IMG/VR virus record: IMGVR_UViG_3300030012_001663
Location: 31,397-95,396 of that record
Length of the DNA: 64,000 bases
Strand: one strand, 5' to 3'
Source: a virus
Shown: positions 5,756 through 42,600 of the stretch, piece after piece
Layout of the letters: each line of letters starts with the position of its first letter
How positions within the stretch are numbered: the stretch's first letter is position 1
The notes under the pieces: model-generated
Database searches by the model: none
Told to the model about the DNA's origin: nothing
Seen by the model: the letters and a program-made list of their open reading frames with translations, nothing else
Program-made: the position numbers and the translations under genes

Positions 5756-5766
5756 AACCAAAATAA

Positions 5767-7392: not shown

Positions 7393-7413
7393 TAAAATTA
7401 ATACTTGACAGAT

Positions 7414-7445
7414 AAGAACCGGTTAGAAATGGCCGGTTCTTTTTT
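7414..7445 (+). terminator. Intrinsic terminator after nrdA
   Basis: AAGAACCGG (7414-7422) and CCGGTTCTT (7433-7441) make a perfect 9-bp stem with a 10-base loop, followed by a run of T. This is a strong rho-independent terminator that closes the nrdBA unit. The remaining 70 bases before 7516 are AT-rich (TTTGTATATTATAGTATAAA) and probably hold the promoter of the next operon, but no exact TAnnTTTG is present. Confidence 0.9.
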
Positions 7446-7515
7446 GTTTACACATATTTAATTTGTATATTATAGTATAAACCAACTCAAGATTATTAAC
7501 ATAAAAATAGTAATT

Positions 7516-8272: not shown

Positions 8273-8288
8273 AATTAAATTAAATAAC

Positions 8289-9790: not shown

Positions 9791-9792
9791 AT

Positions 9793-10191: not shown

Positions 10192-10200
10192 ATTAAAAAA

Positions 10201-10734: not shown

Positions 10735-10865
10735 CCCCATCTCCAAGAAAGACAGAATACTATCATATAGAGATTGAACTCATTCCAATCATCTTCATGT
10801 TCTTTTGGCATATACTGTATTCCTACTAATGGTCCGTGTGCTAATGCTATTATTTTAAAATCCAT
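10731..10865 (-). CDS. 44-residue dwarf protein at the end of the virion operon
   Basis: A gene too short for usual gene calling. The ATG at 10865 overlaps the stop of the 1913-residue gene (TAATG) and the TAG overlaps the stop of the opposite-strand lipoprotein gene. The product reads MDFKIIALAHGPLVGIQYMP, an acidic loop (KEHEDDWNE) and a hydrophobic end (FNLYMIVFCLSWRWG). The plan resembles the dwarf proteins at 3108-3254 and 4477-4668. It fills most of what would otherwise be an apparent 130-base gap. The function is unknown. Confidence 0.65.
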   Translation of the reverse strand: MDFKIIALAHGPLVGIQYMPKEHEDDWNEFNLYMIVFCLSWRWG

Positions 10866-16610: not shown

Positions 16611-19600
16611 TTATATTTTTAAGGTACACTTAATGTTTTCTAAGAAAGCATCATCACTTATACCAAATTTAAGGTTTTTTCTTTTCTTTAGGAAGTCATC
16701 AAAGCTATTTATATCTTCCTTATCTGCAAGTATTGCTAACCTATCATTGAAAGGACCTATGTTTTCATTCCAATAATTAGTCATCTTCTCAACATCCATT
16801 TCAGATCTTTTAGGTTTAAGCATAGCTTTTAATTTACTTGGAGTTTCTACATCATCTTCAACAGCAGTTCCTGTCTCAAACTCTTCTACTCCCTCTATCT
16901 GTTGCTCTGCTCTTTCAAGTGCTGTTGCTTGTGCTTTTGTAAGTTTAGATACAAACTTAGATATATTAGTATTATTTACTTGTACGTTAACACCATCAAA
17001 TGATATATCCTCTGCACCAGAAAAATAATTAGGATCATTTATTCCTGCAGCTCTTTCAAAGTCTTCTAGATCATTTTCTTTGTTCTTCTCTACTACTGTT
17101 TCAAATATTGTTTTACCAGTAGGTCTAGTAAACTCAACTGTATCAAACATAAACCCAATACCATTTTGACTTGTAGAACCTGTAGAGTTTACAATTAGAT
17201 AATTTGTTTTCTTGTTTACAATATTAATATCTTGTCTATCTCCTGTATCCTCTAGTTCATATAAAACTTTATTAATTCTAAGATACATTGGTGCTATATA
17301 ACCATTAGGAGTAATTTCAAATGCTTGTAGGTCTGAAGCTCTTGCACCCTCTGCAGCAAAATCTATAGTAAGACCTTTGTCATTTATGCTAATAACATTG
17401 CTACCGCTTGGCGGTGTATAAAGAGTTTTTACAAAAGACTGAGAAGAAGAAGACTTTAGGTATCCTTCTACAAACTCTTTAGTTAGTTCTTGTATGCTTT
17501 TACCAAATACATCTATAACTCTATTTGGATCATTTTTCTGAGATAAGAATTCTTTTGCAACTACTTCAGAGTTCTGAATAAATCTATCCATAACAAAAGG
17601 TGTGAGTGCTTCTAATAAAGAGCCTTCTGCAAATTGTAAACCATCTTTTACCATTACATAATGTAATATATGTATAGCATCTTCCTTAGTGTTTACCTCA
17701 CCATAAATTTTAGCAAAACCATTTTGTAGTTTTATTTTTTGATTATCACTTAGTCTAGCAAAAGTATTTGACACAGCTGTATTCAAACCTGTATTGTTAT
17801 TTGCATCTTTAAATGATCTGTTATACACAAAGAAATCTAAGAAGTAATTATCTTCATCTTTATATAACTTCTTTAATCTATCTACTACTACATTTATATT
17901 TTCATCTGTAATACTATTAGGATATATCATTGTGTTAGATAGTGATCCTGATCCTATTTTTGCTTCTGTATTTAGTAATTGATTTCTATAAGCTGTAATA
18001 GTTAAAAAAGATAATAAATCAGTAGATATTTTTCTTATATCATTTTCTCTTAGTTGTTTTGTGTTAAAACCAAGAGTAGCTAACATAACTTTAAAGTCTG
18101 TACTGTGTGTCATGAGGATGTTTGGTAATAATACATCCTTAAATTCTTTGTGTATTTTATAGTTTGTTGCATGGAAACTATCACCCTCAAAAATCTTTCT
18201 GACATCAAAAGGTACAGTCTTACCACCTTTTATTCTGTGTTGCTTGAACTCTTTGTTAGTTAGCCCTAATCCTAATTGACTTGCTGCACTTTCTTTACCA
18301 ACAATATCAGCTAAGTTCTTACCATGACCTTGCATTAAGTTAATAAGTGCAGTTGCATTAATACTGTGATTAGTTATAGTATTTACTTTTTGTAATACTC
18401 TAAGAATACCAACTGTTTGAGATTTTGTAACATCTTTATCATTTAAGGCTTTTAATAAAACACCATCTGTAACTTTAGCTGGCTTAGCTTTTAATTCTCG
18501 TATTCTAGCATTAATATTAAAATCTGATACACCTTCTTCTATTAATGCAACAACTTCAGGATTATTTACAAAATATATTGAAGTCTCAAGTGGTACACCT
18601 AAACTTACCATAGTAGTAACATAACCAAGAGCAGTTTTGTTAAGACCTAGCTTAGATGCTAATCTTTCTTTTGCATTATCAGTCATTGCTGTAATCAACT
18701 CAGATAATATATATTGTATTCTATCTCCTTTTTTATTCTGTCTATTATTCTCTAGTACGTAGTCTACACCAAATGTTTTAAATGTAGAATTATTTATACT
18801 AAAGTGATATTGTGGATCAAGCTTAATACCAAACTCAGCAAATAAACTATAATATAAGTTGGGTTTTACAACAACACCAATAGAGTCTGCACCTTCTTTA
18901 TTGTTTTTGAATGATAAAGTTTTACCAAGTAAACTATTTACATCTGTTTTAACATCTGCTGTTCTCTTAGCAAACTCTGGTGCATCTACTTCTAATGACT
19001 TTCTTATCTCTGTAAGTCTTGTAAGCCCTGTACCTTCATAAGATATAGCTACATTATTTTTACCATCTATATTTCTAGGTGTAGTTACAAAGTCATTACC
19101 AAGTAAAGCAAACTTATAATCTAGATCTTTGTTTGATAAAGCACCCGCATATGGTTCACCATAAGTTTCAACATAGGTATTATACTGTTCTAGTGTAATA
19201 GGCATACCAAGCATCTTGAGTGCTTTAATAGAGTCTAGTTCTAAACCTGATGTTCTTCCTATTGCAGTATTGTCATCATCAAGCTTGATAGTTTCTGATC
19301 CTTTGTTTCTTTTATCTAGCGCTTCTTTATAGATATTCTTACCCCTAGCTTTTATTTTACTATTAACGTATTCTACATAGTCTGCATAACCATTTGTACC
19401 ATACTCAACAAACTCATTACCTTTTTGATAAAACTCTTTAAAGTGTGTATATAGTTTATCAATATCAAAGTCAGCACCTGATATCTCTAATAAGTCTACA
19501 GGAAATACAGCAGTTGAGCCAAGATAAGTTGGTAAGAAATCTATCAACTTAAGATTAATAGCTGAGTGATTATCTTGAGAAGGTATACGTACACCATATG

Positions 19601-22600
19601 CTTTTGCAACAGCGTCTGGCATAGATGCATTTGTATTTTTTATTCCTGTCACTACTTCACTGTGGTGTGCAGGCATTAAAAACTCAGAATATCTTTGTCC
19701 TGTATATTTACCATTACTATCATATTCTTTCAATCCCATTCTTGGTTTATCAAGAACAATAACTCCTTGACCTTCTGATGCTTCTATAAGTCCAGCAAGT
19801 CCGTCCATATCTCTTGATATATCCAACACTGGTTTTTCATTACCAAATTGTTTGTGGTAAACATCTTCTCTAATAATTTCTTGTCTGTCTATATTACCGT
19901 TCTCATCTAAAGACAATACTCTTCTATACACTTTAACACCATAACCTGACATTAAAGCAAGAGATGTTCCTGGTAATTTATCAGCCATTACACTCTTACT
20001 GAAATATGCCATAAACAATTGCTCTGCTTTTGCAATAACATTAGGTGTGTTGAGACCATACTTCATAGAACCATCTTCATTTGTCATAAACTGTTCTATA
20101 ATATTAGAACTAGCTTGTGATGCTTTTAAAGATTCTGTTGCATACTGCAAGAAGTTATATAGATCTAACTGTAAATCAACACCAGGTTGTAATAACTCAT
20201 CTGACTTAACACCATCTAAATTATCAAAGTCAACTAGTAAGTTTCTTTTTTGTATATGACTAAGTAGTATCTTTTGTGAGTTGTTTTTATTGTACTGTTC
20301 TTTAATGTCTTTGACAGTAAACTCAGTACCATTTATAGTAACCTTTGTATTATCTTTTTGCTCTCCTGTAATTAATGTTTTCATCTGTGTAGGAGATGTT
20401 ATCTGCATTTTATTAGATGGATTTACTACCTGTAATCCCATAAAGTCTGTAGATAACTCAGTTACATTATTTTTATCTATTGCAGATGCACTAAATGCTT
20501 GGTCATGAGTCAATACATTCTGCTTTAACATCTTAAGAGCTGAGGTAGGAGCACTGAATATAACAGTTTCATTTGCTCTTTCATACTCTTCCATTTTAAT
20601 CCTCATATTATGAAGCTCTACCTTATTAGGTTTTGGAATAGTATATTCTCCATTTTCATCTTTAAGTGAAGTAAGCTCTGGTGTTAGTGCTACAGCTGAC
20701 ATTTTTATGTATGTACTACCATCAAAGTATACCAGCTTCATAGAGTTCATAACATGCTGGTCAGATACATAACCTCTTGTGTCTTCTGATCCAAAGAATT
20801 GATCTGCTGTCACCTCTTCACCTGATTGTACTTGATCATGTAATTGTGCAAAACCTTTATTGAGTCTACCCATACCAAAGTTAGAATATCTAGATCCTTT
20901 GGTTGTCATATAAACTTGTGCATCTGTTTCTTCTGATAACTTATCATCTGCCTTTCTTTGATACATAGGATCATTAAATGGCAGTACGCCAAAAGAACTA
21001 AGTTTGTGATTAATACCTAACTCAGGTGCAACAAAAGGCACAGTAATATTCTTATGTGCTGCATTTTGTCCTTTACCTCTTTTTACCTGATCTACTGCAT
21101 CTTTAAGAGTTCTACTCTCATCTCCAAGCAACAATTGATTGATTGCGGTAGTATTTAATTTATCATTAAAATATATCTGAGCTAAATTAAATGATGCATC
21201 TGATCTTTTTAAATTTAATTGTTCCATTGCTAAGTCTACGTCAGCATCTAATTTTCCTGACTTGTTTACTAAACCTGTAGCTGCAACTGGAATATCTGAA
21301 CCTAATACTCTAAGCTGAGCTATTGTATCTAAAAATTCATCAAACTCATTCATTAAATTAGTTTGTACATGATTGTACAACTTACCTTTTAGTGTTGTAA
21401 GTTTCTTAACTGCATCTTCAAAAGATAGTTCTCCTTTATTTGCTATCTCTTCTAGTTCTGTTGCTACTTCTTCTGATAGATAACCTCTAGATGTAAATAG
21501 CTTATATGCTCTACCGTTTTCATCTGAGTTATATCCTTCAATTCTATCTTGAGTAGGTTCAACAACTTCTTTTACAATTCTATTATATTCTTGTCTAAGT
21601 ATATCTACAAACTCATCTAGTACTGGTACAGCAATAGTCATATCAGAACCTGTTCCTTCAACAGCTTTGGTTACTGGTAATAGCATCATATCACCTGTAT
21701 TAGATGCTTCAAGCACTCTAATTAAAGATGGTGCAAGCGCAACCTTTTCTCCATTTACCTCTACTGTTTTGTTCTTAGAGTTACTAGTATTATATAGATA
21801 GGTATATGCATTAATAAGATTTACTAAAAACTCTTTGGCTGTTTGTTTTCCATATGTAGTAGAATCTTGTTTAACCAAACCACCGTCTCCAATGATCTGA
21901 CCTGCTTCACTTTGTTCTATACTTGCAACTCTTGAACCAGCTATTCTTAATATAGATATTTGATCTGTCTCAGATAATAAATTAAATGCATCTGATTTTA
22001 GCAAGTAGTTATTAGGATATTTCTCTTTAAGCTCTGCAATAAAATCACCATCATTCATTTGTACAGCCATCTTACTGTGGAATGTTGGTAACTGATGTAA
22101 GTAAACCTGGTTACCATCAGCATTTATATATGTACTAGCACCTACATTCTCATCAAACTGCTCATTTGCTATAGCCATTCTAATAAGTCTAGACTCCATG
22201 CCTTCAACACCTTTGTCAAAAATGTTACCTGACTTATCTTCTTTTAATGTAGCACTACTAACAATATCTCTAAATGTAACAAAGTCTTTAGATGACAATG
22301 GTTCTACATTTTGATATTGTTTTATAAATGTCTTTTGTGCTTTTGTAGGTTCTAGAATAGCTTTGCCTTCATTTGCCACAAGCATGCTGTACTTAATATA
22401 TCCTGTGCTAAGTAGTATACCTGTACTATTGTATAACTTTTCTCTAATAATCTCTGCCTCTTTAGATAAAGCTTTTTCAGAAATAGACTTTCTGCTTCTT
22501 GAAAGTTTACCTATTGCATAGTCAAACGTTTGTGTTGCTTGGCTCTTGCTAGATGCATTTCTTTTAATCTCATTTAGTTTTACATCATAAGCTGCTGACC

Positions 22601-25600
22601 ATATATTTATCTGTGATCTTGCAGCATCTCTTGAAGCAGCATCATATAAATAAGTTTTATTATTAGCCGGGTCTTTCTGTACAAATAGGTAGTTAAACCT
22701 GGAGTTTTGGAAAGACTTAATAACCTGTATCAAGAATGCAGGATTATTAACTTGTACTGGCATTTGTTTATTATCAACAAGCATTTGTACATCTTCTTGA
22801 CTCATACCAGCATCATTAAATAATCTATCAACAAATGCTTTTGTGTGCATATTGTCTTGGCCATAATTATATAATGCAAGTAATATGTCTTCTGGTGTAT
22901 TAAGATTCTTCACTGCTTTTAATGCACCATTATATACTCTATCTACATCTACTGGAACAATTAATCTTGCCCCTTCTTTTGTTACTTCACCTCCTACACC
23001 AATAGTTTGATCAACTATAAATTCATTACCAAATATATCTGTGTCTTCTACAGTAATAGTACCTATGTATTGTTTAATTTGTGTAGGTATATTAGAAGCA
23101 CCACCAATCAAACTAGCATCTTTATCCCACTCACTTACATCACGTAGCCCTAAGTTTTCTTCAATAACTTCATTTATATCTGCCTTCTTATCATACTGTA
23201 AGTCATAAAACTCTAATTGTTTTCTCACAGCTTGTATAATAGGGAATGAGCCAGGAGACTCTTCAAACATTAATGCTGTATTTATTTCTACAAGTTGGTC
23301 ATACAATTCATCAGATAATTCATTATATCTAGTTTGTTCTGGATCATAAAGCTCATAGTATTCATCATACATTTGATCTTCAACAGCCTGTAAAGTCATT
23401 TTAGGATTCTTTTCTTTTATTTGTAAGAATCTTGCCGCCATACTGCTGACTAGGAAAGTAGATATATTAGGATCAAGATATTCAAAATCTACAGTTCTTT
23501 CTCCTGCTATTTCTTTTATAGGTAAAAGTTTATATGCATCCAGAGTAACACCCTGATTAATCAACTCATCTGTATAAAGGTTATCTGTAGTACCTCTAGA
23601 TCTAAACTTACCTGCATCAATTGATTCATACAAGCTTTGTAGTTCATTTTTAGAATACTTACCAAATACAGATTTTATCCATGCAATAAATCTGTTAAAC
23701 AAAGATTTAATAAATGATGCTGTCTGAGTATCTTTTGGATTCTTTTTAAATAACTCAAACTGATCTGCCATATACTCTTCAAAGAACTCTTGCTCTAATC
23801 TCTTACGTGACATAGAACCATAGAGATCTGCAGAGTTTTTAAACTTCTGTATTTCTGTTTCAAAGTTCTTACCTTCTGATCTTAGTTTTGCTCTAAGTTC
23901 TTTTTCTGCTAAAGCTAAGTATTGTTTCTGCTCTTCTGGTGATAGTAACATTCTAAATACTGCATGGAAAGCTTCATGGTATCTAAACCCATGATCACCA
24001 ACGTATATAGTTCCGTTGATGTCTAAACCTCCTGCAAGAGAATCAAGAGCTAAAACAAATTTACCAACAGTGACTCCGTTTTCTTTTAGTCTGTTACCTA
24101 CTTCATTAATATCTTTTATAGTAATAAAGTTAGGTAGATTGTTTTCTGCCCATGACAAGAATGAATCAATCTTTTCAGTTTCTACTTCTGCAAACTCTGC
24201 AGGTAGTATTTTGTATGCACTAGAATTATTTAATTTTTTTCTAGCATTATCCACTTCTTTTTGTAAGCTTTGGTACTCTGTATTTTCATCAAGTGCTTTC
24301 TTTCTAGGTACACCGTCTTCTTTTGCCTGCTCATATATAGCTTTCTTAAGAGCATTGGCCTGTGCTTGTAGTTTATTAAACTCTTCTATCTGCTCTTGTC
24401 TTTCAGATACTTGTTCTGACTTAGCCGCTATTTCATCAAGCTTACCTATGTTAAGAGTTTCTTCCTTCTTAGTAGTCTCTTCTTTAACAACCTTTGTACT
24501 TATGATCTTGTCTTTATCAGCCTGTGTAGAGTCAACAGAAAAATGTAATTTTCTTTTTGGTTGTCTAAACTGTATAGTAGTATTAGTTTGATCTAATATC
24601 TCATCTACCGTAGCTGTTTCTGATATAGGCTCCTTAAAGCTTTCAGCACTAAGTGTATTATTTGGATTAACTTTATTGTATTCTGTAATTAAACTTGCAA
24701 GAACATCTGTTGCACCTGTCTCACCAATTGCACCATCTATAAGTTTTTGTATAGCATTTGCTTTGATCTCAACCTTTTTACCACCCATCATGTCTAATGT
24801 AATAGACCCATAAGGTGTAACCTGTACAGCTATTTGTGTACCTGCTTTACCAGCTAGATAGTAATCTGCCTTAATTTCTTTATTCCAATCTGTATTATAA
24901 GAATTAGATTTTACTTTACCTTTTTTATCTACATTTGATTTAGCTGTATCTAATGCTCTTTGTATAATTGTTTTAACAAAGTACTCTTGTATATCTTCTT
25001 TTGGATTTAGATTAAGTGGTGCTAGTTTAATAGTACCATCTGGTCTCTTCATCACTGCAGTGTAACCAGTTCTTAATGCTATCTTATATAAGTTATTATC
25101 CTTAAGATCTTTAACAACCTTATCATACAATGCTTGTGCTGCGTCAGAACCTTTTTCCAAACTACTCTCAAATGTTACAACTTGTTTGCCATTTACAGTT
25201 CTTCTAATTAATACAAACTTATTACCATCATAGGTATTGTTTTCTATTTCATTTACACTAACAGCTGGACCATTGTAATCAAAGCTTTCTCCTTGTATCT
25301 TTATATTAAGACCAAGATCTTTTAGTTCTGATATAGATACTGATGATTTACCATCTGCAAATAATTTATCAAATATTCTTACAACACTTCTAGAAGAGTT
25401 AAACTCACTTAAGATGTGGTTTCTATCTGCAAAGCCTTCAAACATATACTCTAAAGAAGACAAAGGATTATCATTGATGCTAAGTCTCTTGTTATCTTGA
25501 TTTACAAACAAGTATTGTCTATTAGGCATATACGCAACTGGTTGTCCTTCATAGGTTAGAGTAATAGTATACTTCTCATTTACTTTCTTTATAAATGGAT

Positions 25601-28600
25601 TCTCTAGTTTATCACCTATCTTCCAGCCTTTCTCTGGGACACTAACTGCAGGATTCTGTCCTATAGTTATTTCTAGATCATTGATATCTATTACATCAAT
25701 AAGATCTCTAAATCTTTTCTCAGCATCTTCTTTTGACTCACCGTCATTTCTATGAGCATATATACCAGTTAGTTCTCCTGGTCTTACTTTGCTATAGTTA
25801 GCTTTATTTTCAATAATCTTTTCTCTAAAGTTTACTTTGTCTTTAGTGTAGAGTTTAGCAAAGCCTACTTCTTGTACTAAAATGCTATCATCTCTCTTAG
25901 CATTAAAAGGTAGTAATGATATCTTGTTACCATCTACAAGACTTGTTGGTGATCCTAATATATAGAATCCTTGCCCTACAGAATTATAAACTACATCTCC
26001 TTCTTTTAGTTCTACACCATCAAAGACATATGTAGAAGTATCAGAGCCTTGTTTCATCAATGTCTTCCAATCAGCATGTGCTTTAGTCTGGCTTGTATAG
26101 ACACCAATGCTATTTAAATTTGCTTTTGTAAACATATAACCAGGCAATGACTTACCAAAGTTATCTGTAATTCTATAAGTTTTTTCTTTCTTACCGTTTA
26201 CTTCTGTAGTAACCTCTAGTATATTAATACCGGGTCCTTTTTGTACCCACTTTCTTGTTGGACTTTGTACTGTATCTAAACCTTCTTGACTCAAGTCTTG
26301 CTCTACTACATCTGCAATATTAACTGCACCTTTTGCTAAAATAGTTCTTACACCAACTTTACTAGAGTTTTGTGTTAACCATTCACCAAACTTGCTTTCA
26401 TCTACAGCTTCTTCTGTTGGTAAAGTTTCCATCCACATATTTCTAAGCTCTTGTAATGCATAGAATGCTTTTCTTGTAGACGCTAGATTTAACCACTCAG
26501 TTTCACTTATAGGCTGCTCACCAGTATTCAGGGTGTTAACTTTATACTTATCATATAACTTAGTTAAAGAAGACTCAAGACTACCTTGTATCTCATCCTT
26601 TTTTATTGGTGGAAGTTTTGATTCTTGTGCATCAATATTTTCAAAGGTTTGGGTGTCTTGAATTTCAGCTGCTTCCACATCAGGTTCAGCATTTTCTTCT
26701 TGAACATCTTCTTCTGTTTGAGCTTGCTGCTTGTATACTGATATGGCGTCCTGGATTTTTGCATACTTATCTGGATTTGTTTCTTCTGTAACTTGACCAG
26801 CTTCATCTTCAAAGTATTTTAATACAGATGCATCACCTGTAGTTAAGAAGTGCATTGCTGTTTGAGGATCAAGTACAACACCTAATTTATTCAGTTGGTT
26901 TAATAATGTATTCTTTTCTACATCATTAACAGATGCTTTAATAATTTTTCTGAATGTCTTTCTGCTATTCTTAAATATGTTAGCCATTATAGGCTCTATT
27001 CTTTCTGCTAGTTTATCTAGATTATCTGGATCTCTTAATATCTCAATTGCTTTGTCATAAGCTCTTGTTCTTTCTTTAAGAGTACCATAATCAAGAAGTA
27101 ATCTTAATGCCCTATCAACAGCTTCAGTATTTTTAAATGTACCTTTTTCTTCTGCTAATACATTAATATAATCTAAAAATGCTTTTCTTACTTTAACTAT
27201 ATTTTTTTTGCTTCTGCTAAACCTATCACCTTTTTTTGTTTGGTTCTCAGGTGCTGTAATTACATCATAGTAGTTCTGTAAAGCTTTAACTTTTTTCTTT
27301 TTGTTAGCTATATCTGTTCTAAAGTTACCTTTTGTATCTTTAAGAGTTTGTATTTCTTGCTCTAGTAAACTTATTTCTTTTTGTATTGTAGGTGCATCAG
27401 CAAGTACTTGTATATCATTAGCAGCACCTTCTGTAGCAAATATAGGTTCTGTTGCTAATTCATTATAAATACTAGTAGATCTTTCTAAAGCTCTTTGGAA
27501 ACCATCTTCAGTAAATAAATTCAAAAATCTAGCATGCTCATATGCTCTCCACTTAATCAATTCAAGAGTGTGCTCACGTGTACCTTTCTTAAACTTTTCT
27601 GGATTATATTTATTTTGATATTTATTTTTGTGGTTTCTATATCTTTTCTCTTGCTTCTCTATTCTATTGATAAGATTATTTAGTCTTTCTCTACGTTTAC
27701 CCGGTGTTTCTTCTTTAGCTCCTTCAGGGAAAGCTTCTATAAGTTCCTCATCAGATAACTGAGCAAGATCTCTTAATGCATCTGTGTAAAAATGAGTTCT
27801 ACCATTATCAAATAATGTCATAGAGTGTTGGAACTGTGCAAAATCTTTTGCGTCAAAGAAACCAAGAGGATCTCCTTCATAGTTGTATACATCCATTTCT
27901 TTGCTGGTATCATGCTGTACTGCAAAGTTTAATTTGTCTGGATTAAACTGACCATCAGGACTATCTAGCATTTCATTATAACCTTTGTTATACTGTTCTA
28001 CTAGTTTCTCTATGTATTCAGTCTTTTGTTTTTGGTATTCCTGAAACTGTGCTTTGTTTACAAAACGGTTATACATATTAGGCATACCCTGAAATAAAAT
28101 TCTTTGAGGTCCTTGTACTAATCCACCCATTAAGAAACCATGCATAAATGTTTCAAAACCTCTTGCTGACATTTGACTATCTACAGCTGAAGCAAACGCA
28201 TGATCCATTGCTTGATGATGTCCTGCAGATGGATGTTCTAGTATTTGAGAATAAAAGTCTTTCGTACCAACAGCAACTGCTTCTTGATAAACTTCTTGAA
28301 AACCTTCTGCAAAGTTAGCTGCAAAGTATCTTATAGCACCATGAGCACCTGCTCTAGCAGTACCACCTACTGTCCAAGACTTAATTCTTTTCATAGAAGG
28401 TAGACCAAGCCACCCTTCTCCTACATCTTCAAAAACATCTCTAGATGCTTTACCTACTGCATCTCTTAATGGTTTAGTTCTTAGTATCCTTCTACCATAG
28501 TTAGTAAGTTGCTCATTAAATATTCTACCTAATGAACCACCTCTACCACTTAATGCTTTTTGTAATACAAATTTATTTGTAAGCCATATAAATGGAGCAT

Positions 28601-29891
28601 TTAATCGTAATGTGCTATATGCAGCTTTTGATGCATTCTCATGAACTTCTTGAAATTCTTCAGGAGTCAAATCTCTACCTAATTCATTAGACTTAATAGC
28701 ATATGCATTACCAAGTTGGTTTCCATATACCATACCAGCTTCCATTTTACCTTCTGCTATAGCTAAATTTAATGCTCTTATATCCCTATAAAATCCTCCA
28801 AATAGTAATGATGCTTTACCTATATTACCAAGACCTTGAGCAGCTACTTTAGTACTATTGAGTTCTTTAAGAGCTCTCATTGTATCAGTGAATAAGAATT
28901 GACCAACTGTAGATTCACCGGTTCTTATAGCATTCCACCAACTTCTTGCATGATCAACCCTGTTAAGACCACTTAGCATTCTTTGAGTAGCTTTTGCTGT
29001 CTTATATATATTAAAAGTATTACCTATGGCTTTAGCTCCTCTATATAGATTTCTACCAGTACCCGCAACAAATGCACCTATACCAGTTGGAGCACCTACA
29101 CCAGTCATTGTTACAGCTGCTGATCCCATAGCAAGAGCTAGTTCTTCTGCTGCTATAGATCCTATAATACCAAATGTATAAGCACTATTTAAAAGAAAAT
29201 TATTAGCACTAGCACCAAAACCATCTCTAGAACTAGAGCCTATTCTCATACCTTGTTCCATAGCCATAGCACCTTCAATATCAGGGTCTCCTAGGTCACC
29301 AGAAAAATAATCACCTATTGCTCTATATCCACTAAAAAATGCTGAGCCAAACAAACCTCCAAACTGTCCCCACATTCTACTTCTGTCATCAGATAAAGAA
29401 CTATTTGCATTATAAATTTCTTCCATATCTATTCTATAGGGTGTAAATCCTATAGCTGCAAACTTTGGGTGTTCATAGTATCTGTCAAATCCTGTATCTG
29501 CTACACTAAACCTAAATGGCTTCTGAGTCTTAAAAGGACCTGGCTCACCAGGTAATTCTATATTATGTTTCTTTAGAAGTGCTGCCGGGTTACGGCTTTC
29601 AAACTTTAACTTATCTGTAATAGAAGGTTGTTTACCTAAGACATTAAGTCCTTCAGGCATAAAGAAAGCATTAGCCTTTGCTTCTTGAGCAAACTCTGCT
29701 TGTCTTGCTTCATCTAAAAAATCATTTACTGGAATATCACCCAAGGGTATTTTAAACACATCACTAATAGGTAAATGTGAAAGATTATCTACACTGTTCA
29801 AACCTAACTGTGTATTTATAGGATTAGGTGCTAGAACTGACTCTGTCTCCCTTGGTGATGGAACAGAGGTTATGTTTCTTTCTTCTGCCAT
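16611..29891 (-). CDS. Giant 4426-residue protein: zincin-like protease plus virion RNA polymerase (crAss-like)
   Basis: One of the largest proteins expected in a phage. Residues 233-280 are a long hydrophobic Gly/Ala-rich stretch (AAEELALAMGSAAVTMTGVG) that could insert in membranes. Residues 1972-1976 are HEAFH, an HExxH zinc site, with a third-ligand candidate at E2038/E2039 (EQEFFEEYMAD): a gluzincin-like protease. Near residue 3440 RIPSQDNHS leads to GSTAVFPVDLLEISGADFDID, where D3474, D3476 and D3478 form the DxDxD metal-binding loop of the second double-psi barrel of RNA polymerases. This region matches crAss-like virion polymerases such as Cellulophaga phi14:2 gp66. The polymerase is expected to be ejected with DNA to transcribe early genes; the protease may process the chain. 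Assignment of the polymerase is strong; the domain limits are rough. Confidence 0.9.
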   Translation of the reverse strand: MAEERNITSVPSPRETESVLAPNPINTQLGLNSVDNLSHLPISDVFKIPLGDIPVNDFLDEARQAEFAQEAKANAFFMPEGLNVLGKQPSITDKLKFESRNPAALLKKHNIELPGEPGPFKTQKPFRFSVADTGFDRYYEHPKFAAIGFTPYRIDMEEIYNANSSLSDDRSRMWGQFGGLFGSAFFSGYRAIGDYFSGDLGDPDIEGAMAMEQGMRIGSSSRDGFGASANNFLLNSAYTFGIIGSIAAEELALAMGSAAVTMTGVGAPTGIGAFVAGTGRNLYRGAKAIGNTFNIYKTAKATQRMLSGLNRVDHARSWWNAIRTGESTVGQFLFTDTMRALKELNSTKVAAQGLGNIGKASLLFGGFYRDIRALNLAIAEGKMEAGMVYGNQLGNAYAIKSNELGRDLTPEEFQEVHENASKAAYSTLRLNAPFIWLTNKFVLQKALSGRGGSLGRIFNEQLTNYGRRILRTKPLRDAVGKASRDVFEDVGEGWLGLPSMKRIKSWTVGGTARAGAHGAIRYFAANFAEGFQEVYQEAVAVGTKDFYSQILEHPSAGHHQAMDHAFASAVDSQMSARGFETFMHGFLMGGLVQGPQRILFQGMPNMYNRFVNKAQFQEYQKQKTEYIEKLVEQYNKGYNEMLDSPDGQFNPDKLNFAVQHDTSKEMDVYNYEGDPLGFFDAKDFAQFQHSMTLFDNGRTHFYTDALRDLAQLSDEELIEAFPEGAKEETPGKRRERLNNLINRIEKQEKRYRNHKNKYQNKYNPEKFKKGTREHTLELIKWRAYEHARFLNLFTEDGFQRALERSTSIYNELATEPIFATEGAANDIQVLADAPTIQKEISLLEQEIQTLKDTKGNFRTDIANKKKKVKALQNYYDVITAPENQTKKGDRFSRSKKNIVKVRKAFLDYINVLAEEKGTFKNTEAVDRALRLLLDYGTLKERTRAYDKAIEILRDPDNLDKLAERIEPIMANIFKNSRKTFRKIIKASVNDVEKNTLLNQLNKLGVVLDPQTAMHFLTTGDASVLKYFEDEAGQVTEETNPDKYAKIQDAISVYKQQAQTEEDVQEENAEPDVEAAEIQDTQTFENIDAQESKLPPIKKDEIQGSLESSLTKLYDKYKVNTLNTGEQPISETEWLNLASTRKAFYALQELRNMWMETLPTEEAVDESKFGEWLTQNSSKVGVRTILAKGAVNIADVVEQDLSQEGLDTVQSPTRKWVQKGPGINILEVTTEVNGKKEKTYRITDNFGKSLPGYMFTKANLNSIGVYTSQTKAHADWKTLMKQGSDTSTYVFDGVELKEGDVVYNSVGQGFYILGSPTSLVDGNKISLLPFNAKRDDSILVQEVGFAKLYTKDKVNFREKIIENKANYSKVRPGELTGIYAHRNDGESKEDAEKRFRDLIDVIDINDLEITIGQNPAVSVPEKGWKIGDKLENPFIKKVNEKYTITLTYEGQPVAYMPNRQYLFVNQDNKRLSINDNPLSSLEYMFEGFADRNHILSEFNSSRSVVRIFDKLFADGKSSVSISELKDLGLNIKIQGESFDYNGPAVSVNEIENNTYDGNKFVLIRRTVNGKQVVTFESSLEKGSDAAQALYDKVVKDLKDNNLYKIALRTGYTAVMKRPDGTIKLAPLNLNPKEDIQEYFVKTIIQRALDTAKSNVDKKGKVKSNSYNTDWNKEIKADYYLAGKAGTQIAVQVTPYGSITLDMMGGKKVEIKANAIQKLIDGAIGETGATDVLASLITEYNKVNPNNTLSAESFKEPISETATVDEILDQTNTTIQFRQPKRKLHFSVDSTQADKDKIISTKVVKEETTKKEETLNIGKLDEIAAKSEQVSERQEQIEEFNKLQAQANALKKAIYEQAKEDGVPRKKALDENTEYQSLQKEVDNARKKLNNSSAYKILPAEFAEVETEKIDSFLSWAENNLPNFITIKDINEVGNRLKENGVTVGKFVLALDSLAGGLDINGTIYVGDHGFRYHEAFHAVFRMLLSPEEQKQYLALAEKELRAKLRSEGKNFETEIQKFKNSADLYGSMSRKRLEQEFFEEYMADQFELFKKNPKDTQTASFIKSLFNRFIAWIKSVFGKYSKNELQSLYESIDAGKFRSRGTTDNLYTDELINQGVTLDAYKLLPIKEIAGERTVDFEYLDPNISTFLVSSMAARFLQIKEKNPKMTLQAVEDQMYDEYYELYDPEQTRYNELSDELYDQLVEINTALMFEESPGSFPIIQAVRKQLEFYDLQYDKKADINEVIEENLGLRDVSEWDKDASLIGGASNIPTQIKQYIGTITVEDTDIFGNEFIVDQTIGVGGEVTKEGARLIVPVDVDRVYNGALKAVKNLNTPEDILLALYNYGQDNMHTKAFVDRLFNDAGMSQEDVQMLVDNKQMPVQVNNPAFLIQVIKSFQNSRFNYLFVQKDPANNKTYLYDAASRDAARSQINIWSAAYDVKLNEIKRNASSKSQATQTFDYAIGKLSRSRKSISEKALSKEAEIIREKLYNSTGILLSTGYIKYSMLVANEGKAILEPTKAQKTFIKQYQNVEPLSSKDFVTFRDIVSSATLKEDKSGNIFDKGVEGMESRLIRMAIANEQFDENVGASTYINADGNQVYLHQLPTFHSKMAVQMNDGDFIAELKEKYPNNYLLKSDAFNLLSETDQISILRIAGSRVASIEQSEAGQIIGDGGLVKQDSTTYGKQTAKEFLVNLINAYTYLYNTSNSKNKTVEVNGEKVALAPSLIRVLEASNTGDMMLLPVTKAVEGTGSDMTIAVPVLDEFVDILRQEYNRIVKEVVEPTQDRIEGYNSDENGRAYKLFTSRGYLSEEVATELEEIANKGELSFEDAVKKLTTLKGKLYNHVQTNLMNEFDEFLDTIAQLRVLGSDIPVAATGLVNKSGKLDADVDLAMEQLNLKRSDASFNLAQIYFNDKLNTTAINQLLLGDESRTLKDAVDQVKRGKGQNAAHKNITVPFVAPELGINHKLSSFGVLPFNDPMYQRKADDKLSEETDAQVYMTTKGSRYSNFGMGRLNKGFAQLHDQVQSGEEVTADQFFGSEDTRGYVSDQHVMNSMKLVYFDGSTYIKMSAVALTPELTSLKDENGEYTIPKPNKVELHNMRIKMEEYERANETVIFSAPTSALKMLKQNVLTHDQAFSASAIDKNNVTELSTDFMGLQVVNPSNKMQITSPTQMKTLITGEQKDNTKVTINGTEFTVKDIKEQYNKNNSQKILLSHIQKRNLLVDFDNLDGVKSDELLQPGVDLQLDLYNFLQYATESLKASQASSNIIEQFMTNEDGSMKYGLNTPNVIAKAEQLFMAYFSKSVMADKLPGTSLALMSGYGVKVYRRVLSLDENGNIDRQEIIREDVYHKQFGNEKPVLDISRDMDGLAGLIEASEGQGVIVLDKPRMGLKEYDSNGKYTGQRYSEFLMPAHHSEVVTGIKNTNASMPDAVAKAYGVRIPSQDNHSAINLKLIDFLPTYLGSTAVFPVDLLEISGADFDIDKLYTHFKEFYQKGNEFVEYGTNGYADYVEYVNSKIKARGKNIYKEALDKRNKGSETIKLDDDNTAIGRTSGLELDSIKALKMLGMPITLEQYNTYVETYGEPYAGALSNKDLDYKFALLGNDFVTTPRNIDGKNNVAISYEGTGLTRLTEIRKSLEVDAPEFAKRTADVKTDVNSLLGKTLSFKNNKEGADSIGVVVKPNLYYSLFAEFGIKLDPQYHFSINNSTFKTFGVDYVLENNRQNKKGDRIQYILSELITAMTDNAKERLASKLGLNKTALGYVTTMVSLGVPLETSIYFVNNPEVVALIEEGVSDFNINARIRELKAKPAKVTDGVLLKALNDKDVTKSQTVGILRVLQKVNTITNHSINATALINLMQGHGKNLADIVGKESAASQLGLGLTNKEFKQHRIKGGKTVPFDVRKIFEGDSFHATNYKIHKEFKDVLLPNILMTHSTDFKVMLATLGFNTKQLRENDIRKISTDLLSFLTITAYRNQLLNTEAKIGSGSLSNTMIYPNSITDENINVVVDRLKKLYKDEDNYFLDFFVYNRSFKDANNNTGLNTAVSNTFARLSDNQKIKLQNGFAKIYGEVNTKEDAIHILHYVMVKDGLQFAEGSLLEALTPFVMDRFIQNSEVVAKEFLSQKNDPNRVIDVFGKSIQELTKEFVEGYLKSSSSQSFVKTLYTPPSGSNVISINDKGLTIDFAAEGARASDLQAFEITPNGYIAPMYLRINKVLYELEDTGDRQDINIVNKKTNYLIVNSTGSTSQNGIGFMFDTVEFTRPTGKTIFETVVEKNKENDLEDFERAAGINDPNYFSGAEDISFDGVNVQVNNTNISKFVSKLTKAQATALERAEQQIEGVEEFETGTAVEDDVETPSKLKAMLKPKRSEMDVEKMTNYWNENIGPFNDRLAILADKEDINSFDDFLKKRKNLKFGISDDAFLENIKCTLKI

Positions 29892-29897
29892 CTTATG

Positions 29898-32800
29898 TTA
29901 TTTTTGTTGGTTGTTAAGAAAATTTTGTTTTTTCTGAGTATTGATTACCATTCTATCTCTTAATTCTCTTCTATATGCTTGAATAATATAATCTATCTCA
30001 GCTGATGTTGCTGGTACTTTACCTGCTTCATCTATTGTTACAATCATAGGTGATATCTTATCATTTACCACAAAATCTTGTTTGTCATCACTCCAGCTTA
30101 CATAATTACCAGTCATCATAAAATTAGCGCCATCTTTATAGAAAGATAAAGAACCTCCAGCATCAACATCAAAGGTAACATTATTATCATCACTATATGT
30201 CATATCTATTTCATAATCTGAATAACCTCTACCAAAAGCATTTTCTACAGAGTATTGACTTTTATCAGACTCTTGAGGGAATATAATACTTAACTCACCT
30301 AATAGTCCTCTTAGTTCAGCTTCTGTTACACCTTGAGTTTCTGCATCATATTTACTTACAAATTGTTTTATGTAATCATCATCAAATTTAAGTACATATG
30401 CAGCATGAGTTTTATCCCCTTGATTTGGAGGGCCAGCTACCGGCATATATTCTATTTGAACTCTTGGGTTCTTGCCTTCTCCAGATTTATCTATTATAAA
30501 AGCTTGTATATCTTGAACAGCTTGCTCAAAAAACTTTTCTGCTACAGGTTCGTCTTTACCTAATTGGGCATTTGCTTCATCAGCATCAACTTGGCTTTCT
30601 GTTATATTCCCAAACTGAATAACTGCAGTACCTGAGTTAAATTGTTCTATAGCACCATTCAATAAAAATGCACCCTGTTGTGTTGGTGCTTTAGGGTTAA
30701 ATGTTGCATCATACCCTCTAAATTGTCTTGCAGAATCACCCGTCATTAAACTAGGAGAAACATTTTCTAAACCTTCAGCATAAGACCATCTTTGAAAAGG
30801 TGATTTAAAATCTGAATCTTTTTCTGTAGCATGAGTATTAATAGCGCCATTAAGCGTACCATTAATTAACATTTTTTGTTGATCATACTGTACTTTAGCA
30901 TCTTCTCTAGCTTTACCTATTTTAAAAAAATCTTTCTTAAGAATTAAACCATATCTATTATTTCGTCTAACCTCTTGAGCATAAGCATTATTACGGTCCT
31001 CACCATATAACTCATCCATTTCTTTTCTAGACATGGTTCTATTGTAAACATAGTTTTTGAAATCCTTGCTAAGCTCACCTGATTGAGCTCTTCTTACATA
31101 CTCATTTATAAAATCTTCTTCAGATAGTTTAACTACATTACCATTTGCATCTTTAGAAAAAATTCTAGGAACATTATATTTCTTTACATTATTTAAAATG
31201 TCTTTGCCATATTCTGTTTGGGCTGCAAACTCAAAATTGTTATAAGCTATCTCGTTCCCTTTATTAGTAAGCATAATAGATTTATTATCCTCTCTTCTTA
31301 TATCATCAGCTCTATCTCTGAAACCATCTTTTATTTGGTTTATTTTATCATTTTCTTCTTTGCTCCTTGATGTATTTGGATTTGAATTTTTCTCTAATAT
31401 AGTTGATGAGTATGTTTCAAATAATTCATTTGCTATTGCAGAATTTGCTGGATTGCTTAAAAATATTTGTGCCTCATTAATACTCATTGCACCTTGACCT
31501 GGTATTTCTATCACTGATGGTTTACCACCTTCTATATTAGATTGTATTTGTTGATGAGCATCTTTTATAAATTCAGCCTTAGATCTTTGATTTAAATTTA
31601 AATGTTTTTGTTTTGTTAACTCATCTTCTCCTATATTATCTCTAGTTAGACTTACAATATTATTATTTCTGTCTACCTCCATATCAACATTTGCAGCAGA
31701 CTTTCTACTAACACCTGGGATCATTGGGCCAATAAAAGGATTCTCCAATGATTTCTTATACTCTTCTAGTTGTGCTTTAAGTTCATATTCTTTATACATT
31801 TTATTCATATCCATTTTGTGCTTCTCTAAAGCTACACCGTATGGATTGGCTTTGATAGACTCCTTATAATCTATCATACTATATGACTTAGCTGCAGCCA
31901 TCATATCATCATTGATATTATACTGCATATTCATCATGAATGCTTTATTCATTAAGTCTTTATCTCTTGTACCTTGAGCTGATACAGCATTGTTTACAAT
32001 ATCTTCTCCTTGCTCTATCTCTTGTCTTATAGCTAAATATCTGCTTATAAAATCTTCACCTCTTTTACCATCAGGAGTATCAGCACCAATGTTGTATTTT
32101 TCATTATATTCTTTCCAAAGATCAGCTGATACTTTCATTACCTGAGCCTTTTTCTTTTTATCTTTTAGTAATGCTGCTGTGTTAGTGCTTATTTCTTCTA
32201 TAGTGGTATTAGCCCACATCTCCTCACCTTGAGCAACTGAAGCAACCTCTCCTGCTTCAAGTCTTGCATTAGCAAAGTTTCTTGCTTGTACTCTTGCGCT
32301 TGTTTTATATGCTTCTATAACTCTAGGATCATCCATAAGAGCTCTATTTAAATAAGCATATGCTTGATCTGTTACAAGTGCACCATTCTTTTGGGTTATA
32401 ATCCATCTACCTTTTTCGTCAAGTCTATCTATCTCAACGTTAAAGCCTTGTTCTTTTAATAAGGCAAGGGATGTTTCATATAAATTAGCATTAGGTACAT
32501 AGTTACCTATACCCATATTTAATGCTTCATCTGGACTTGCATTAATATAATCTTGCATTTGGATATTTAAATCCTGCACTCCAGTTTCCCAATAAAGATC
32601 TCTTTTAGCTTTGTCATTGCTATTCTTTAAAAACTCTGCATTCTTGATACCGTATTTAAAGTTAGCTGTGTTTGTAAGGTCTCTTATTATGGCATCATCT
32701 TCATAGAAAGGTTTAAATATACCCTTAGCCATATCTACATTTTGACGTAGAGATAAATCAAATCCAGATACTTGCTCCATCTTTGGTGCAATCTGTTGTG

Positions 32801-33002
32801 CAAACTGATCTCTCTTTTCCTTATTATCATCTCTACTTAGATCAGCATATACAACTTTGCTATAAGCATCATTAAGTGCCTGATAATTTGTATCATATCT
32901 GTTCTGTCTTGTTTCTAAGACTGTAGATAAAAACTTATAATCAGGTACAAAAGGCTTAGCCTCTCTGTCGTACATTTGATATCCTTGAACGTATGTTGCC
33001 AT
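29898..33002 (-). CDS. 1034-residue internal virion protein candidate
   Basis: A mostly helical protein, MATYVQGYQMYDREAKPFVP at the start, rich in Lys, Glu, Asn and Gln with frequent Tyr. It has no signal peptide, TM segment or enzyme motif that I recognise. It lies directly before the giant polymerase gene (six bases) and after a set of tail-proximal proteins. Size, helicity and location suit an ejection or cargo protein that is packaged with the polymerase. The last third becomes beta-rich (SYSDDNNVTFDVDAGGSLSF type sequence). No known family name is offered. Confidence 0.8.
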   Translation of the reverse strand: MATYVQGYQMYDREAKPFVPDYKFLSTVLETRQNRYDTNYQALNDAYSKVVYADLSRDDNKEKRDQFAQQIAPKMEQVSGFDLSLRQNVDMAKGIFKPFYEDDAIIRDLTNTANFKYGIKNAEFLKNSNDKAKRDLYWETGVQDLNIQMQDYINASPDEALNMGIGNYVPNANLYETSLALLKEQGFNVEIDRLDEKGRWIITQKNGALVTDQAYAYLNRALMDDPRVIEAYKTSARVQARNFANARLEAGEVASVAQGEEMWANTTIEEISTNTAALLKDKKKKAQVMKVSADLWKEYNEKYNIGADTPDGKRGEDFISRYLAIRQEIEQGEDIVNNAVSAQGTRDKDLMNKAFMMNMQYNINDDMMAAAKSYSMIDYKESIKANPYGVALEKHKMDMNKMYKEYELKAQLEEYKKSLENPFIGPMIPGVSRKSAANVDMEVDRNNNIVSLTRDNIGEDELTKQKHLNLNQRSKAEFIKDAHQQIQSNIEGGKPSVIEIPGQGAMSINEAQIFLSNPANSAIANELFETYSSTILEKNSNPNTSRSKEENDKINQIKDGFRDRADDIRREDNKSIMLTNKGNEIAYNNFEFAAQTEYGKDILNNVKKYNVPRIFSKDANGNVVKLSEEDFINEYVRRAQSGELSKDFKNYVYNRTMSRKEMDELYGEDRNNAYAQEVRRNNRYGLILKKDFFKIGKAREDAKVQYDQQKMLINGTLNGAINTHATEKDSDFKSPFQRWSYAEGLENVSPSLMTGDSARQFRGYDATFNPKAPTQQGAFLLNGAIEQFNSGTAVIQFGNITESQVDADEANAQLGKDEPVAEKFFEQAVQDIQAFIIDKSGEGKNPRVQIEYMPVAGPPNQGDKTHAAYVLKFDDDYIKQFVSKYDAETQGVTEAELRGLLGELSIIFPQESDKSQYSVENAFGRGYSDYEIDMTYSDDNNVTFDVDAGGSLSFYKDGANFMMTGNYVSWSDDKQDFVVNDKISPMIVTIDEAGKVPATSAEIDYIIQAYRRELRDRMVINTQKKQNFLNNQQK

Positions 33003-39622: not shown

Positions 39623-42600
39623 TATCTGTATGACAACTGTAATTTAGTATTGTGTAATCTTAATAACATTTTTCTTCTCTCAGATCTGTTTCTTCTTAGT
39701 AATACTTTGTTATAGTAATGTCTAAGTTTTTTTCTTTGCGTCTCAGCTTTGTTATAATCTAAGTTATTTGCATTAAGATCTTTTATATATCCGTTTAACC
39801 TTGTCACAAATATTGGTTGCTCAAAGTTGCTAAACTCTCCTCTATCTCTTGTAATATCCCAAAACTGATTAAATCTATACTTCTGTTCCTCCTTAGAGTA
39901 AAGAATATCTATATCATTAGCATTGATAATAGGATACTGTAAAGCATCTATAGGTTGTTCTTTAGGTGTAATATTTAGTTTTAATAAACCTGATACCTGC
40001 TCACTATTGTATAATATAGCTTCATCAAAATTAAAATCTAAGTCATGCCATCTATCATCATTACATGCATCATGGTCCTTACCTTTGTATACATAAGACT
40101 CTAAATGATATTCAACACTCCTAATAGTATTTACAGCTTGACCTGTTTGTTGTATCAATTCTATCTCCCAAGGATAATCAACACCATAAAAGTTAGAATA
40201 TAAATCACATCTATAGTTATGTCTCCATAATCCTGATTCTACATTACTTGGAGTAGTTGTTTCTAATCCAAAGTAGTTACACATCTTTGGAGTTGGGTTT
40301 ATGTAAGTACTACTACCAACTAAGAATGTATCAGGACAAGTTCCTGACTCAGTTGTTGTTCCTGATGGGAATGGAGAAGGTGGACATTCACATTCTACCT
40401 TTCTACATATAGGTGGGTTTTCATTATCACATGTTCCATTTGGTAATACATACTCTCCACCAACACCATTTGGATAAACTAAAGTATATCCTGGAGGACA
40501 TTCACATTCATAGTCTGTACCACAAGCTGCACTTGTTACAGCATTAGCAACAGCACTTGGAGAATTAGGTCCAGTTGTTTGATTAGCTGCTATTGTAAAT
40601 TGATTAGCTGAAACATTACAAGTAACAGCATCTAAAATACCCTGACCACCAGCTGGAGGAGTTGGATTTGTTGGATCACAAAATACTCCTATTACTTCAT
40701 ATCCTGCTTGATTCTGATATTGACATCCCACTGGATTACCACCTGGTCCAGCAGTTGCCGGGCCACATATAGTATTATTACCATCAGTCATTAAAATTAA
40801 AACATTTCTAAAACTTGGTAGTGCTGATCTATCACCTAACTGTGAAGTAGCTTTATTAGATAATATATTTGCACCACCATTTAACCCAGCACATACGTTT
40901 GTTCCTCCAGTAGAACCTGCTGCATAATATGTTTGAACTTGTGCCGGAGTTACAGTATTACTCATACTAAATCCGTTAGGATTCATTGAACTTACTTGAG
41001 TAGCATTCCATCTTGTAAATCCTATTTGTATATCACCTGAAGCCATTTGAGCTGATATATTGGGATCATTTAAAAAAGCTTGTACAAAAGCTCTTTGTGC
41101 ATCAATTCTAAATGGTGGACCAGGAGGATCATCTGTACTACCTGAAACATCCATAGCAATAACAATATCAACTAAACAATTTTCAGGTCCACCTGTTATT
41201 GTTGCAGCTACCTCATCTACATTAACTGGAGCCGGTTCAAAAATGTTTTGTCCTCTTTCACATAGTCCTGTTGTAGAATTATAAACATAACCATCTGGAC
41301 ATATAGGTGTGTCTGACTCAGCTGTTTTTGTTGTAAGGAAATGATTTATACTGTGTAAATGCATTTCTGGATGCCAGTCATGGAATGATATCCATGATTT
41401 AATTTTAGGATCATATGATACTGTCCAAGAACAATCTTCAAAGTATGTAGGATCTCCTATCTCTACATCTATAACTATACCTGCAGGTGTAGTAAACTTT
41501 ACTTGAGATTTTTCATAGTCAAAAGACATTTCACCAGCAATCTTCTTTTTAACTCTGTAGTCTTTCTTACAGAAGTATACTATGTCATCATTAGCGTCAT
41601 ATATAGTTTGACAACCAACACCTGCAACTGGGTTGTCTGCTAATGGATGACCTTCTAACTCTGGTAAATCTTTTATTAATTGACATGGTAAGTATTTGTT
41701 AAACCACCATTTCATTCCTGCATCAGCTATATTAACAAGACCTCTACCAGTATATTGGAATATTTTACCTTGTTGTTGAGACATAAAGAATAAACCTGTT
41801 GGTGTATTTACAATACTTCTCAAACTTTCTACAGATCCATATTCATGTGATACATCTGAATTAGTTATATTTTGTGGTTCTCTATTAAACAAACCTCCGT
41901 CACCAACTGTTACTTTATTTCCAAGGTCTGTTTGTAATGTATCAACACCTTGGAACATTTGTGGAGACTGATAAGGGAAGAATATAACAGCACCTGTCTT
42001 ATTCATAGGTTTAATAGCGCTTACAGTGCTTTTAAAGTCCTTATAATTATTTGGTAAGAATACCCTCCAGAAATCTTTTTTAGCTTCTTGTTGAGCTCTT
42101 AATGAATATATTAATCTTTTTGGATAATAGTCATGACATGCATCAGCAATAAGCGGATCATAATCTCTAGGTTGAATATTACCTGCGCTAATAAGATTCA
42201 TCTGAAATCTACTATTACTCAGAGAGTAGTCATATCTATAGAAGTTATCTTCTTTAATTATGTCTGCATGTAATAATCCATTTATATCATTGTCATTATA
42301 TATATCAAATACTCTTTCCTCTGATTTTGCACCATAATCTCTATACGCTAAGTTTATTTCTGATTCAACAAAGAAGTCAGATATACCATTAATATGCGTA
42401 TAGATATATGCATACTTCATTACAAATGTAGGACCATCACTGCCTCCAAATAAATCACTTAGAGCACTAGTAAAGTTTCTTCTATCCAAGTAGTATAAAT
42501 CATCAGGAAAAGCTTGATCAGTAGAACTTAAACCTAAACTTATAATCTCTTGTGCTAACTGACCTGTATCATACCTTTCAGATGATAACCAGTATCTTGG

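What the first reader, a model, noticed from the sequence alone, without database searches (positions are those of the whole stretch)
16611..29891. Giant protein with virion RNA polymerase and zincin protease
The sequence shows a DxDxD loop (residues 3474-3478) with the flanking pattern of crAss-like virion polymerases, and an HExxH site (1972-1976) with a downstream Glu, in a single 4426-residue chain. In crAss-like phages the polymerase is packaged and ejected. A fused protease could free the polymerase before or after entry.
Basis: partly seen in the sequence, partly recalled or inferred. Interest (0 to 1): 0.85.

Follow-up and report, generated by a model that had tools for sequence, protein, structure and literature searches.

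The report
crAss-like phage giant polymerase-protease protein
A phage related to the gut crAss phages makes one very large protein that joins a virus-packaged type of RNA polymerase to a protease-like domain; the combination is widespread in this phage group and partly annotated before, but what the protease does is unknown.

Summary
In detail: one 4426-codon ORF, on the minus strand, with HEAFH at 1972 and DFDID at 3474. The polymerase is established by homology: a family profile matches the solved phi14:2 virion polymerase (6vr4, E=8.5e-102) and the predicted structure aligns to it at Z 22.1 over 857 residues. The zincin is well supported by motif, an invariant downstream EExxA and predicted topology; no solved structure matched and activity is untested. 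The giant is a head-to-tail fusion of what PhiCrAss001 encodes as gp47 (zincin near its C-terminus) and gp50 (polymerase); 8 of 8 Suoliviridae examined share the fused layout. p-crAssphage gp45 is already annotated 'putative RNAP associated protein fused to zincin protease', and zincin-polymerase fusions are published for N4-like phages. So this is a distant new member of a known kind. Freeing of the polymerase by cleavage is possible but not favoured as sole role: the zincin is kept intact where it lies in a different gene, and the N4 polymerase is reported packaged uncut. Side result: a second zincin type, downstream of the polymerase in some crAss-like phages, is profile-similar (96%) to the zincin of the N4 polymerase.

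The parts
16611..29891 (-). giant protein, 4426 aa: N-terminal module, zincin, linker, two-barrel RNA polymerase, C module
27792..29891 (-). residues 1-700, N-terminal module, homologous to PhiCrAss001 gp47 68-614 and phi14:2 gp78 18-503
   Evidence: best iE 3.6e-36 and 2.4e-21
29061..29183 (-). residues 237-277, the most hydrophobic stretches of the N-terminal module (mean Kyte-Doolittle 1.3-1.5 per 19 residues); possible membrane-active segment, weak
23568..24185 (-). residues 1903-2108, zincin-like domain
23964..23978 (-). HEAFH, residues 1972-1976
23766..23780 (-). EEYMA, residues 2038-2042, the invariant EExxA, proposed third zinc ligand
18432..21794 (-). residues 2700-3820, two-barrel RNA polymerase core
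19458..19472 (-). DFDID catalytic loop, residues 3474-3478
16617..18344 (-). residues 3850-4425, C module, a separate gene in L043, L057 and L059
10865..16606 (-). 1913-aa partner, homologous to PhiCrAss001 gp49 (residues 1308-1823 to 816-1285 of that ORF, 3.5e-24); weak exonuclease match at 531-619
29898..33002 (-). 1034-aa protein just upstream of the giant in the same run of genes; no family
36857..39622 (-). 921-aa probable cargo/ejection protein with SLT transglycosylase domain
39622..45714 (-). 2030-aa virion structural protein, homologous to Flavobacterium phage Fpv1 structural protein (6.7e-17) and weakly to p-crAssphage gp49 (0.004)

Best explanation
This is the packaged early-transcription machine of a crAss-like phage, made as one chain: an N-terminal ejection module, then a zincin-like metallopeptidase, then a single-chain two-barrel RNA polymerase. 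It equals PhiCrAss001 gp47 and gp50 (or the places of phi14:2 gp78 and gp77) joined head to tail. It is most likely packed in the head with the other cargo proteins, threaded through the tail and refolded in the host, where the polymerase transcribes the early genes. The zincin is most likely an active protease that works after ejection, in cis at flexible segments beside it or on a partner or host protein. Shown: the chain, the polymerase homology and predicted fold, the domain order, the conservation of the zincin residues. Inferred: packaging, ejection, protease activity, its timing and its target.
For: Polymerase: hmmsearch of A4 finds 6vr4 at 8.5e-102; AlphaFold model pLDDT 85.2; Foldseek 8.6e-31; VIA Z 22.1, rmsd 4.6, 857 aligned. 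Fusion: segment profiles place N1 and zincin on PhiCrAss001 gp47 (68-614, 2097-2295) and the polymerase on gp50 734-1894 and phi14:2 gp77 686-1721. Zincin: E157, E158 and A161 invariant in 57 of 57 rows; of 80 loci kept by a polymerase-only scan, 76 have the domain with HExxH intact, 74 of them in the polymerase ORF. Packaging by homology: gp47, gp49 and gp50 were found in PhiCrAss001 virions (PMC10172136, PMC6235969, passages); phi14:2 gp76, gp77, gp78 carry MS/MS annotation.
Against: No solved zincin matched the model and no Pfam or NCBIfam peptidase family was found at a meaningful level. Activity, cleavage and packaging of this protein were not tested. The zincin is dispensable in some lineages: L130 lacks it, phi14:2 gp78 has none, and the Spirosoma locus L200 keeps the domain but has lost the first histidine.
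Confidence: 0.55

Rival explanations
1. One reading: the zincin cuts the chain beside itself and thereby frees the polymerase from the N-terminal module, before or after entry.
For: The zincin lies between the N-terminal module and the polymerase; the stretch just before it (1801-1900) is charged and variable in length among relatives; gene breaks in relatives fall on either side of the zincin, after it in PhiCrAss001 and just before it in L096; P1 DdrB is said to be processed before packaging (PMC5512222, passage).
Against: The zincin with intact motif is kept where gene fission has already separated the parts. The N4 polymerase is reported as packaged unprocessed. PhiCrAss001 gel bands include about 270 kDa, which fits uncut gp47 at 262.5 kDa, though the passages seen do not assign bands.
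Confidence: 0.3
2. The zincin is an injected effector that cuts a host or defence protein; fusion to the polymerase only ensures co-delivery.
For: Kept in a separate or differently fused gene in relatives; zincins are reported as the commonest domain of injected polyvalent proteins, and effector roles are proposed there (PMC5512222, passages).
Against: No target known; the position before the polymerase is very constant, 72 of 80 loci have a DxDxD loop downstream in the same ORF.
Confidence: 0.3
3. The domain is structural: it helps packaging or assembly, and the motif is a relic or a metal-binding fold element.
For: In N4 the region with the zincin is said to be needed for encapsidation while the protein stays uncut (PMC5512222); L200 has lost the first histidine and keeps the rest.
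Against: HExxH intact in 76 of 76 loci that carry the domain and were chosen without regard to it.
Confidence: 0.2

Closest known systems
Giant transcription-block proteins of Suoliviridae (delta crAss-like phages), e.g. Culoivirus cr55_1 4551 aa, Buorbuivirus cr4_1
   Same: Same order, zincin about 1430-1530 residues before DFD[IV]D in one ORF, followed by a further large gene
   Different: Only 21-23% identity to cr55_1 in the polymerase region; the window phage lacks the second, downstream zincin that cr55 and cr4 have
PhiCrAss001 gp47 + gp50 (Steigviridae)
   Same: Same modules: N1 and zincin in gp47, polymerase in gp50; found in virions
   Different: Two genes on opposite strands
Cellulophaga phage phi14:2 virion RNA polymerase (gp66 in the finding's numbering, gp077 in the record), PDB 6vr4
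   Same: Polymerase homology and fold; upstream gp78 shares the N1 module
   Different: Separate genes; no zincin in gp78; an HExxH in gp76 instead
p-crAssphage gp45 and gp44 (BK010471)
   Same: gp45 annotated as RNAP-associated protein fused to zincin protease; gp44 polymerase
   Different: Gene border between zincin and polymerase; gp45 is not matched by the window-type zincin profile
N4 virion RNA polymerase and polyvalent-protein zincins
   Same: Giant ejected polymerase with a zincin-like domain; membrane helices predicted in the N-terminal domain at 224-278 (PMC12633501 section 6; PMC5512222 passages)
   Different: Polymerase of the T7 type (recalled, and the paper title), unrelated fold; zincin after the polymerase; profile match to the window's zincin only 23%

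Membership tests
crAss-like two-barrel virion RNA polymerase | DxDxD metal-binding loop in a conserved context | tested here: met
   DFDID; the three Asp and the preceding R-I-P are invariant in 54 of 54 rows, two of which read DKDID
crAss-like two-barrel virion RNA polymerase | Two double-psi barrels in one chain, fold of phi14:2 6vr4 | tested here: met
   Predicted model; Z 22.1 over 857 residues to 6vr4, Z about 16 to QDE-1; a prediction, not an experiment
crAss-like two-barrel virion RNA polymerase | Packaged in the virion | not testable with these tools
   Homologues gp47/gp49/gp50 and phi14:2 gp76-78 are
crAss-like two-barrel virion RNA polymerase | Transcribes early genes | not testable with these tools
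   Reported for phi14:2 (PMC7886860 and PMC10136315, passages)
Zincin-like metallopeptidase of polyvalent proteins | HExxH | tested here: met
   HEAFH; intact in 76 of 80 loci kept by a polymerase-only scan, 4 without the domain, 3 of these cut at the 5' end
Zincin-like metallopeptidase of polyvalent proteins | Conserved Glu on a following helix | tested here: met
   EExxA invariant in 57 of 57, on predicted helix 148-169 of the model
Zincin-like metallopeptidase of polyvalent proteins | Core of N-terminal helix, three strands, two helices | tested here: met
   Predicted order H27-37, E42-46, E62-72, E74-83, H89-100, H148-169, with extra helices between, compared with the description in PMC5512222; an order of elements, not a superposition
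Zincin-like metallopeptidase of polyvalent proteins | Structural match to a solved zincin | tested here: inconclusive
   No significant match in PDB; significant matches only to phage proteins in BFVD
Zincin-like metallopeptidase of polyvalent proteins | Proteolytic activity | not testable with these tools
   none
Order Crassvirales | Hallmark capsid, portal and terminase genes | tested here: inconclusive
   Not recognised among the ORFs examined; the record may be incomplete. A tail-stabilisation-like and a gp49-like protein are present
N4-like virion RNA polymerase | T7-type polymerase domain | tested here: not met
   Two-barrel fold instead

The most novel reading that the evidence does not exclude
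A zincin is the shared component of giant ejected RNA polymerases whose polymerases are unrelated. The crAss-like type found downstream of the polymerase is homologous to the N4 zincin domain, and the window's type is a diverged or independently recruited counterpart. The protease, acting after threading through the tail, would be a general requirement for making an ejected polymerase work in the host.
Probability: 0.2. Interest if true: 0.7.

Novelty: new member of a known kind. Interest (0 to 1): 0.4.

Why it matters
Giant ejected polymerases pose an open question: how chains of 250-500 kDa pass a narrow tail and become active. A protease-like domain conserved at the border between ejection module and polymerase across many crAss-like phages, and a related domain in the N4 polymerase, gives a concrete and testable hypothesis. 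It also corrects generic names in the databases: several of these genes are called 'DNA helicase', 'nuclear pore complex protein-like' or 'DprA-like'.

Tried and rejected
DxDxD as evidence by itself: rejected, chance level. PHROGs and Pfam scans of the giant: nothing in PHROGs, only weak unrelated Pfam names. phmmer of the single sequence against PDB: nothing; the family profile found 6vr4. Zincin profile against PDB sequences: nothing meaningful; Pfam, NCBIfam and PHROGs on its relatives: only scattered weak names, peptidase M41 in 2 of 57 at best E 0.13. Foldseek and VIA on the zincin model against PDB: no significant match; absence is not evidence of a new fold.

P23-45 gp96 as a third lineage with a zincin: rejected. 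The paper says metallopeptidase, but the protein has no HExxH and the domain is M23. L072, L140 and L180 as natural gene splits: doubtful, the breaks fall at or inside the polymerase region with overlapping ORFs, so frameshifts or errors are as likely. MAG titles as hosts: not used. Literature: searches for crAss-like with zincin (0 papers), crAssphage with metalloprotease, crAss-like with polyvalent, Crassvirales with metallopeptidase listed no paper whose title or abstract start points to this, and I did not open most of those listed; two key papers (Yutin 2018, Drobysheva 2021) are not held and figures are not held, so I do not claim that the fusion is absent from print.

Full report
What is there. 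The ORF 16611..29891 lies on the minus strand and encodes 4426 residues without a stop. HEAFH 1972-1976 and DFDID 3474-3478 are exact. Shuffling the protein gives 0.049 HExxH and 1.18 DxDxD per copy, so the first motif is informative and the second is not. The window is 64,000 bases of a 95,396-base virus record.

Polymerase. tblastn of residues 2901-4426 matches 114 phage records at E<=0.01, best Culoivirus cr55_1 at 6e-7 and 21.0% identity. I aligned 54 rows (the window plus 53 of 71 usable loci, thinned for redundancy). The profile finds the phi14:2 polymerase 6vr4 at 8.5e-102, 345 bits, with the next PDB match at 0.027. The AlphaFold model of residues 2700-3849 has mean pLDDT 85.2 and pTM 0.84. 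Foldseek ranks 6vr4 first (8.6e-31), then QDE-1 at 3e-4; VIA gives Z 22.1, rmsd 4.6, 857 aligned for 6vr4 and about 16 for QDE-1.

Zincin. An alignment of 12 crAss-like domains shows HEA[FWY]H and a downstream E..A invariant. A scan with that alignment kept 80 of 221 confirmed viral loci; the search pattern required HEA[FW]H, so that motif is selected there. The EExxA is not selected and is invariant in all 57 rows of the thinned set. In those 80 loci, 70 have D[FYL]DxD downstream in the same ORF, 2 have DKDID in the same ORF, 1 (L072) has it in the next ORF and 7 are cut off before that point. The two sets of 80 overlap in contigs, hold near-duplicates and are the closest relatives, so the percentages are not those of all crAss-like phages. 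The model of residues 1882-2161 has mean pLDDT 73.1, with block means of 89 or more over model residues 91-170, and the order of elements described for polyvalent-protein metallopeptidases. It matches no solved structure significantly; in BFVD it matches crAss-like giants and structural protein X5I2P0 of Pseudomonas phage KPP25 (6e-5). KPP25's 2009-residue ORF088, which I take to be that protein, has FHESMH at 1236.

Architecture. Profiles from 47 giants (the window plus 46 of 54) show that residues 1-700 match PhiCrAss001 gp47 68-614 and phi14:2 gp78 18-503; the zincin matches gp47 2097-2295, near its end at 2341; the polymerase matches gp50 734-1894, phi14:2 gp77 686-1721 and p-crAssphage gp44 799-1870. 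So the giant is a fusion of two proteins that other families encode apart. All 8 Suoliviridae examined (cr55, cr4, cr50, cr118, cr10, cr56, cr114, cr109; taxonomy) have the fused form with HEA[FWY]H. In relatives gene borders lie at several points: just before the zincin (L096), about 900-1250 residues before it (L074, L083, L085, L086, L089, L097), after it (PhiCrAss001), after the polymerase (L043, L057, L059). The following 1913-aa gene matches PhiCrAss001 gp49. Upstream lie a 2030-aa structural protein like that of Fpv1 and a 921-aa protein with an SLT transglycosylase domain, neighbours that fit a block of virion and cargo proteins.

Zincins in the transcription block. In a panel of 17 phages, all 17 have at least one HExxH in the proteins examined, 21 motifs against 0.73 expected from shuffles. 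The panel is not random: most Suoliviridae and cr85 were picked from a zincin search, L003 is partial and cr10 is represented by one protein. Five (phi14:2, p-crAssphage, crAss002, cr127_1, Fpv1) were not picked that way and have HExxH of other types. A second type, [LF]HExxHxxTV, lies downstream of the polymerase in cr55, cr4, phi14:2 gp76 and Fpv1. Its profile (4 rows) matches that of the N4-like domains (6 rows) at 96.3% probability over 109 columns; N4 HELVH is at 2228 and the motif is present in 13 of 13 N4-like loci. The window's type matches the second type at 70.9% and the N4 type at 22.9%. A Pfam match of the cr55 copy to ATLF (1.9e-5, 24.9 bits against a cut-off of 27.4) agrees with a zincin fold.

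Mechanism. By homology the protein is packaged: PhiCrAss001 gp47, gp49 and gp50 were detected in virions (PMC10172136 and PMC6235969, passages), and phi14:2 gp76, gp77, gp78 bear MS/MS annotation. The N4 polymerase is reported as packaged unprocessed although the zincin region is needed for encapsidation (PMC5512222, passages), and P23-45 gp96, whose peptidase is M23, is full-sized in virions (PMC10770324, passages). I therefore place any cutting after ejection. Whether the target is the chain itself, a partner or a host protein is open. Retention of an intact motif where gene fission has already separated zincin and polymerase argues that self-release is not the only role. Loss of the first histidine in the Spirosoma oryzae locus L200, with DFDID intact, and absence in L130 and phi14:2 gp78 show that this zincin can be dispensed with.

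Known or new. p-crAssphage gp45 is annotated 'putative RNAP associated protein fused to zincin protease'. Fused giants lie in GenBank under generic names. One paper notes that fusions of virion polymerases to large proteins of unknown function occur in crAss-like and N4-related phages (PMC10770324, passage). Zincin-polymerase fusion and autoproteolysis were proposed for N4-like phages in 2017 (PMC5512222), in a paper whose main text does not contain 'crAss'. The window protein is a distant new member of this kind. In the papers that I searched I did not come across the link between the downstream crAss-like zincin and the N4 domain, or the position of the zincin at the fusion border; key subscription papers and all figures were out of reach, so this is no claim of priority.

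Noticed in passing
L200 (Spirosoma oryzae DSM 28354 contig), ORF 5671-15771: A crAss-like polymerase giant (3367 aa, DFDID intact) in an isolate genome on a 228,862-base contig; the zincin domain has lost its first histidine (EEAFH). Possibly an integrated or co-assembled phage.
   Followed up: partly
L184 (N4 polymerase residue 2228), L182 (Vibrio phage phi 1 residues 1942 and 2177), L004, L009, L007, L005: Zincin type downstream of the polymerase shared by crAss-like phages and N4-like phages (96.3% profile probability).
   Followed up: partly
L183/L181, Pseudomonas phage KPP25 ORF088 (2009 aa): Structural protein with FHESMH at 1236 and a weak match to the crAss-like zincin profile; its neighbours were not examined for a polymerase.
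   Followed up: partly
L130, ORF 4808-14689: Close relative without this zincin; a separate 1057-aa ORF precedes it and HEYQH occurs at 1679 near the start of the polymerase match.
   Followed up: no
window 39622-45714 and 49818-52064: Von Willebrand type A domain matches in two structural-region proteins (748-aa protein above the Pfam cut-off, 2030-aa protein below it).
   Followed up: no
window 53566-58836: 1756-aa protein with many tail-fibre family matches (25 shown).
   Followed up: no
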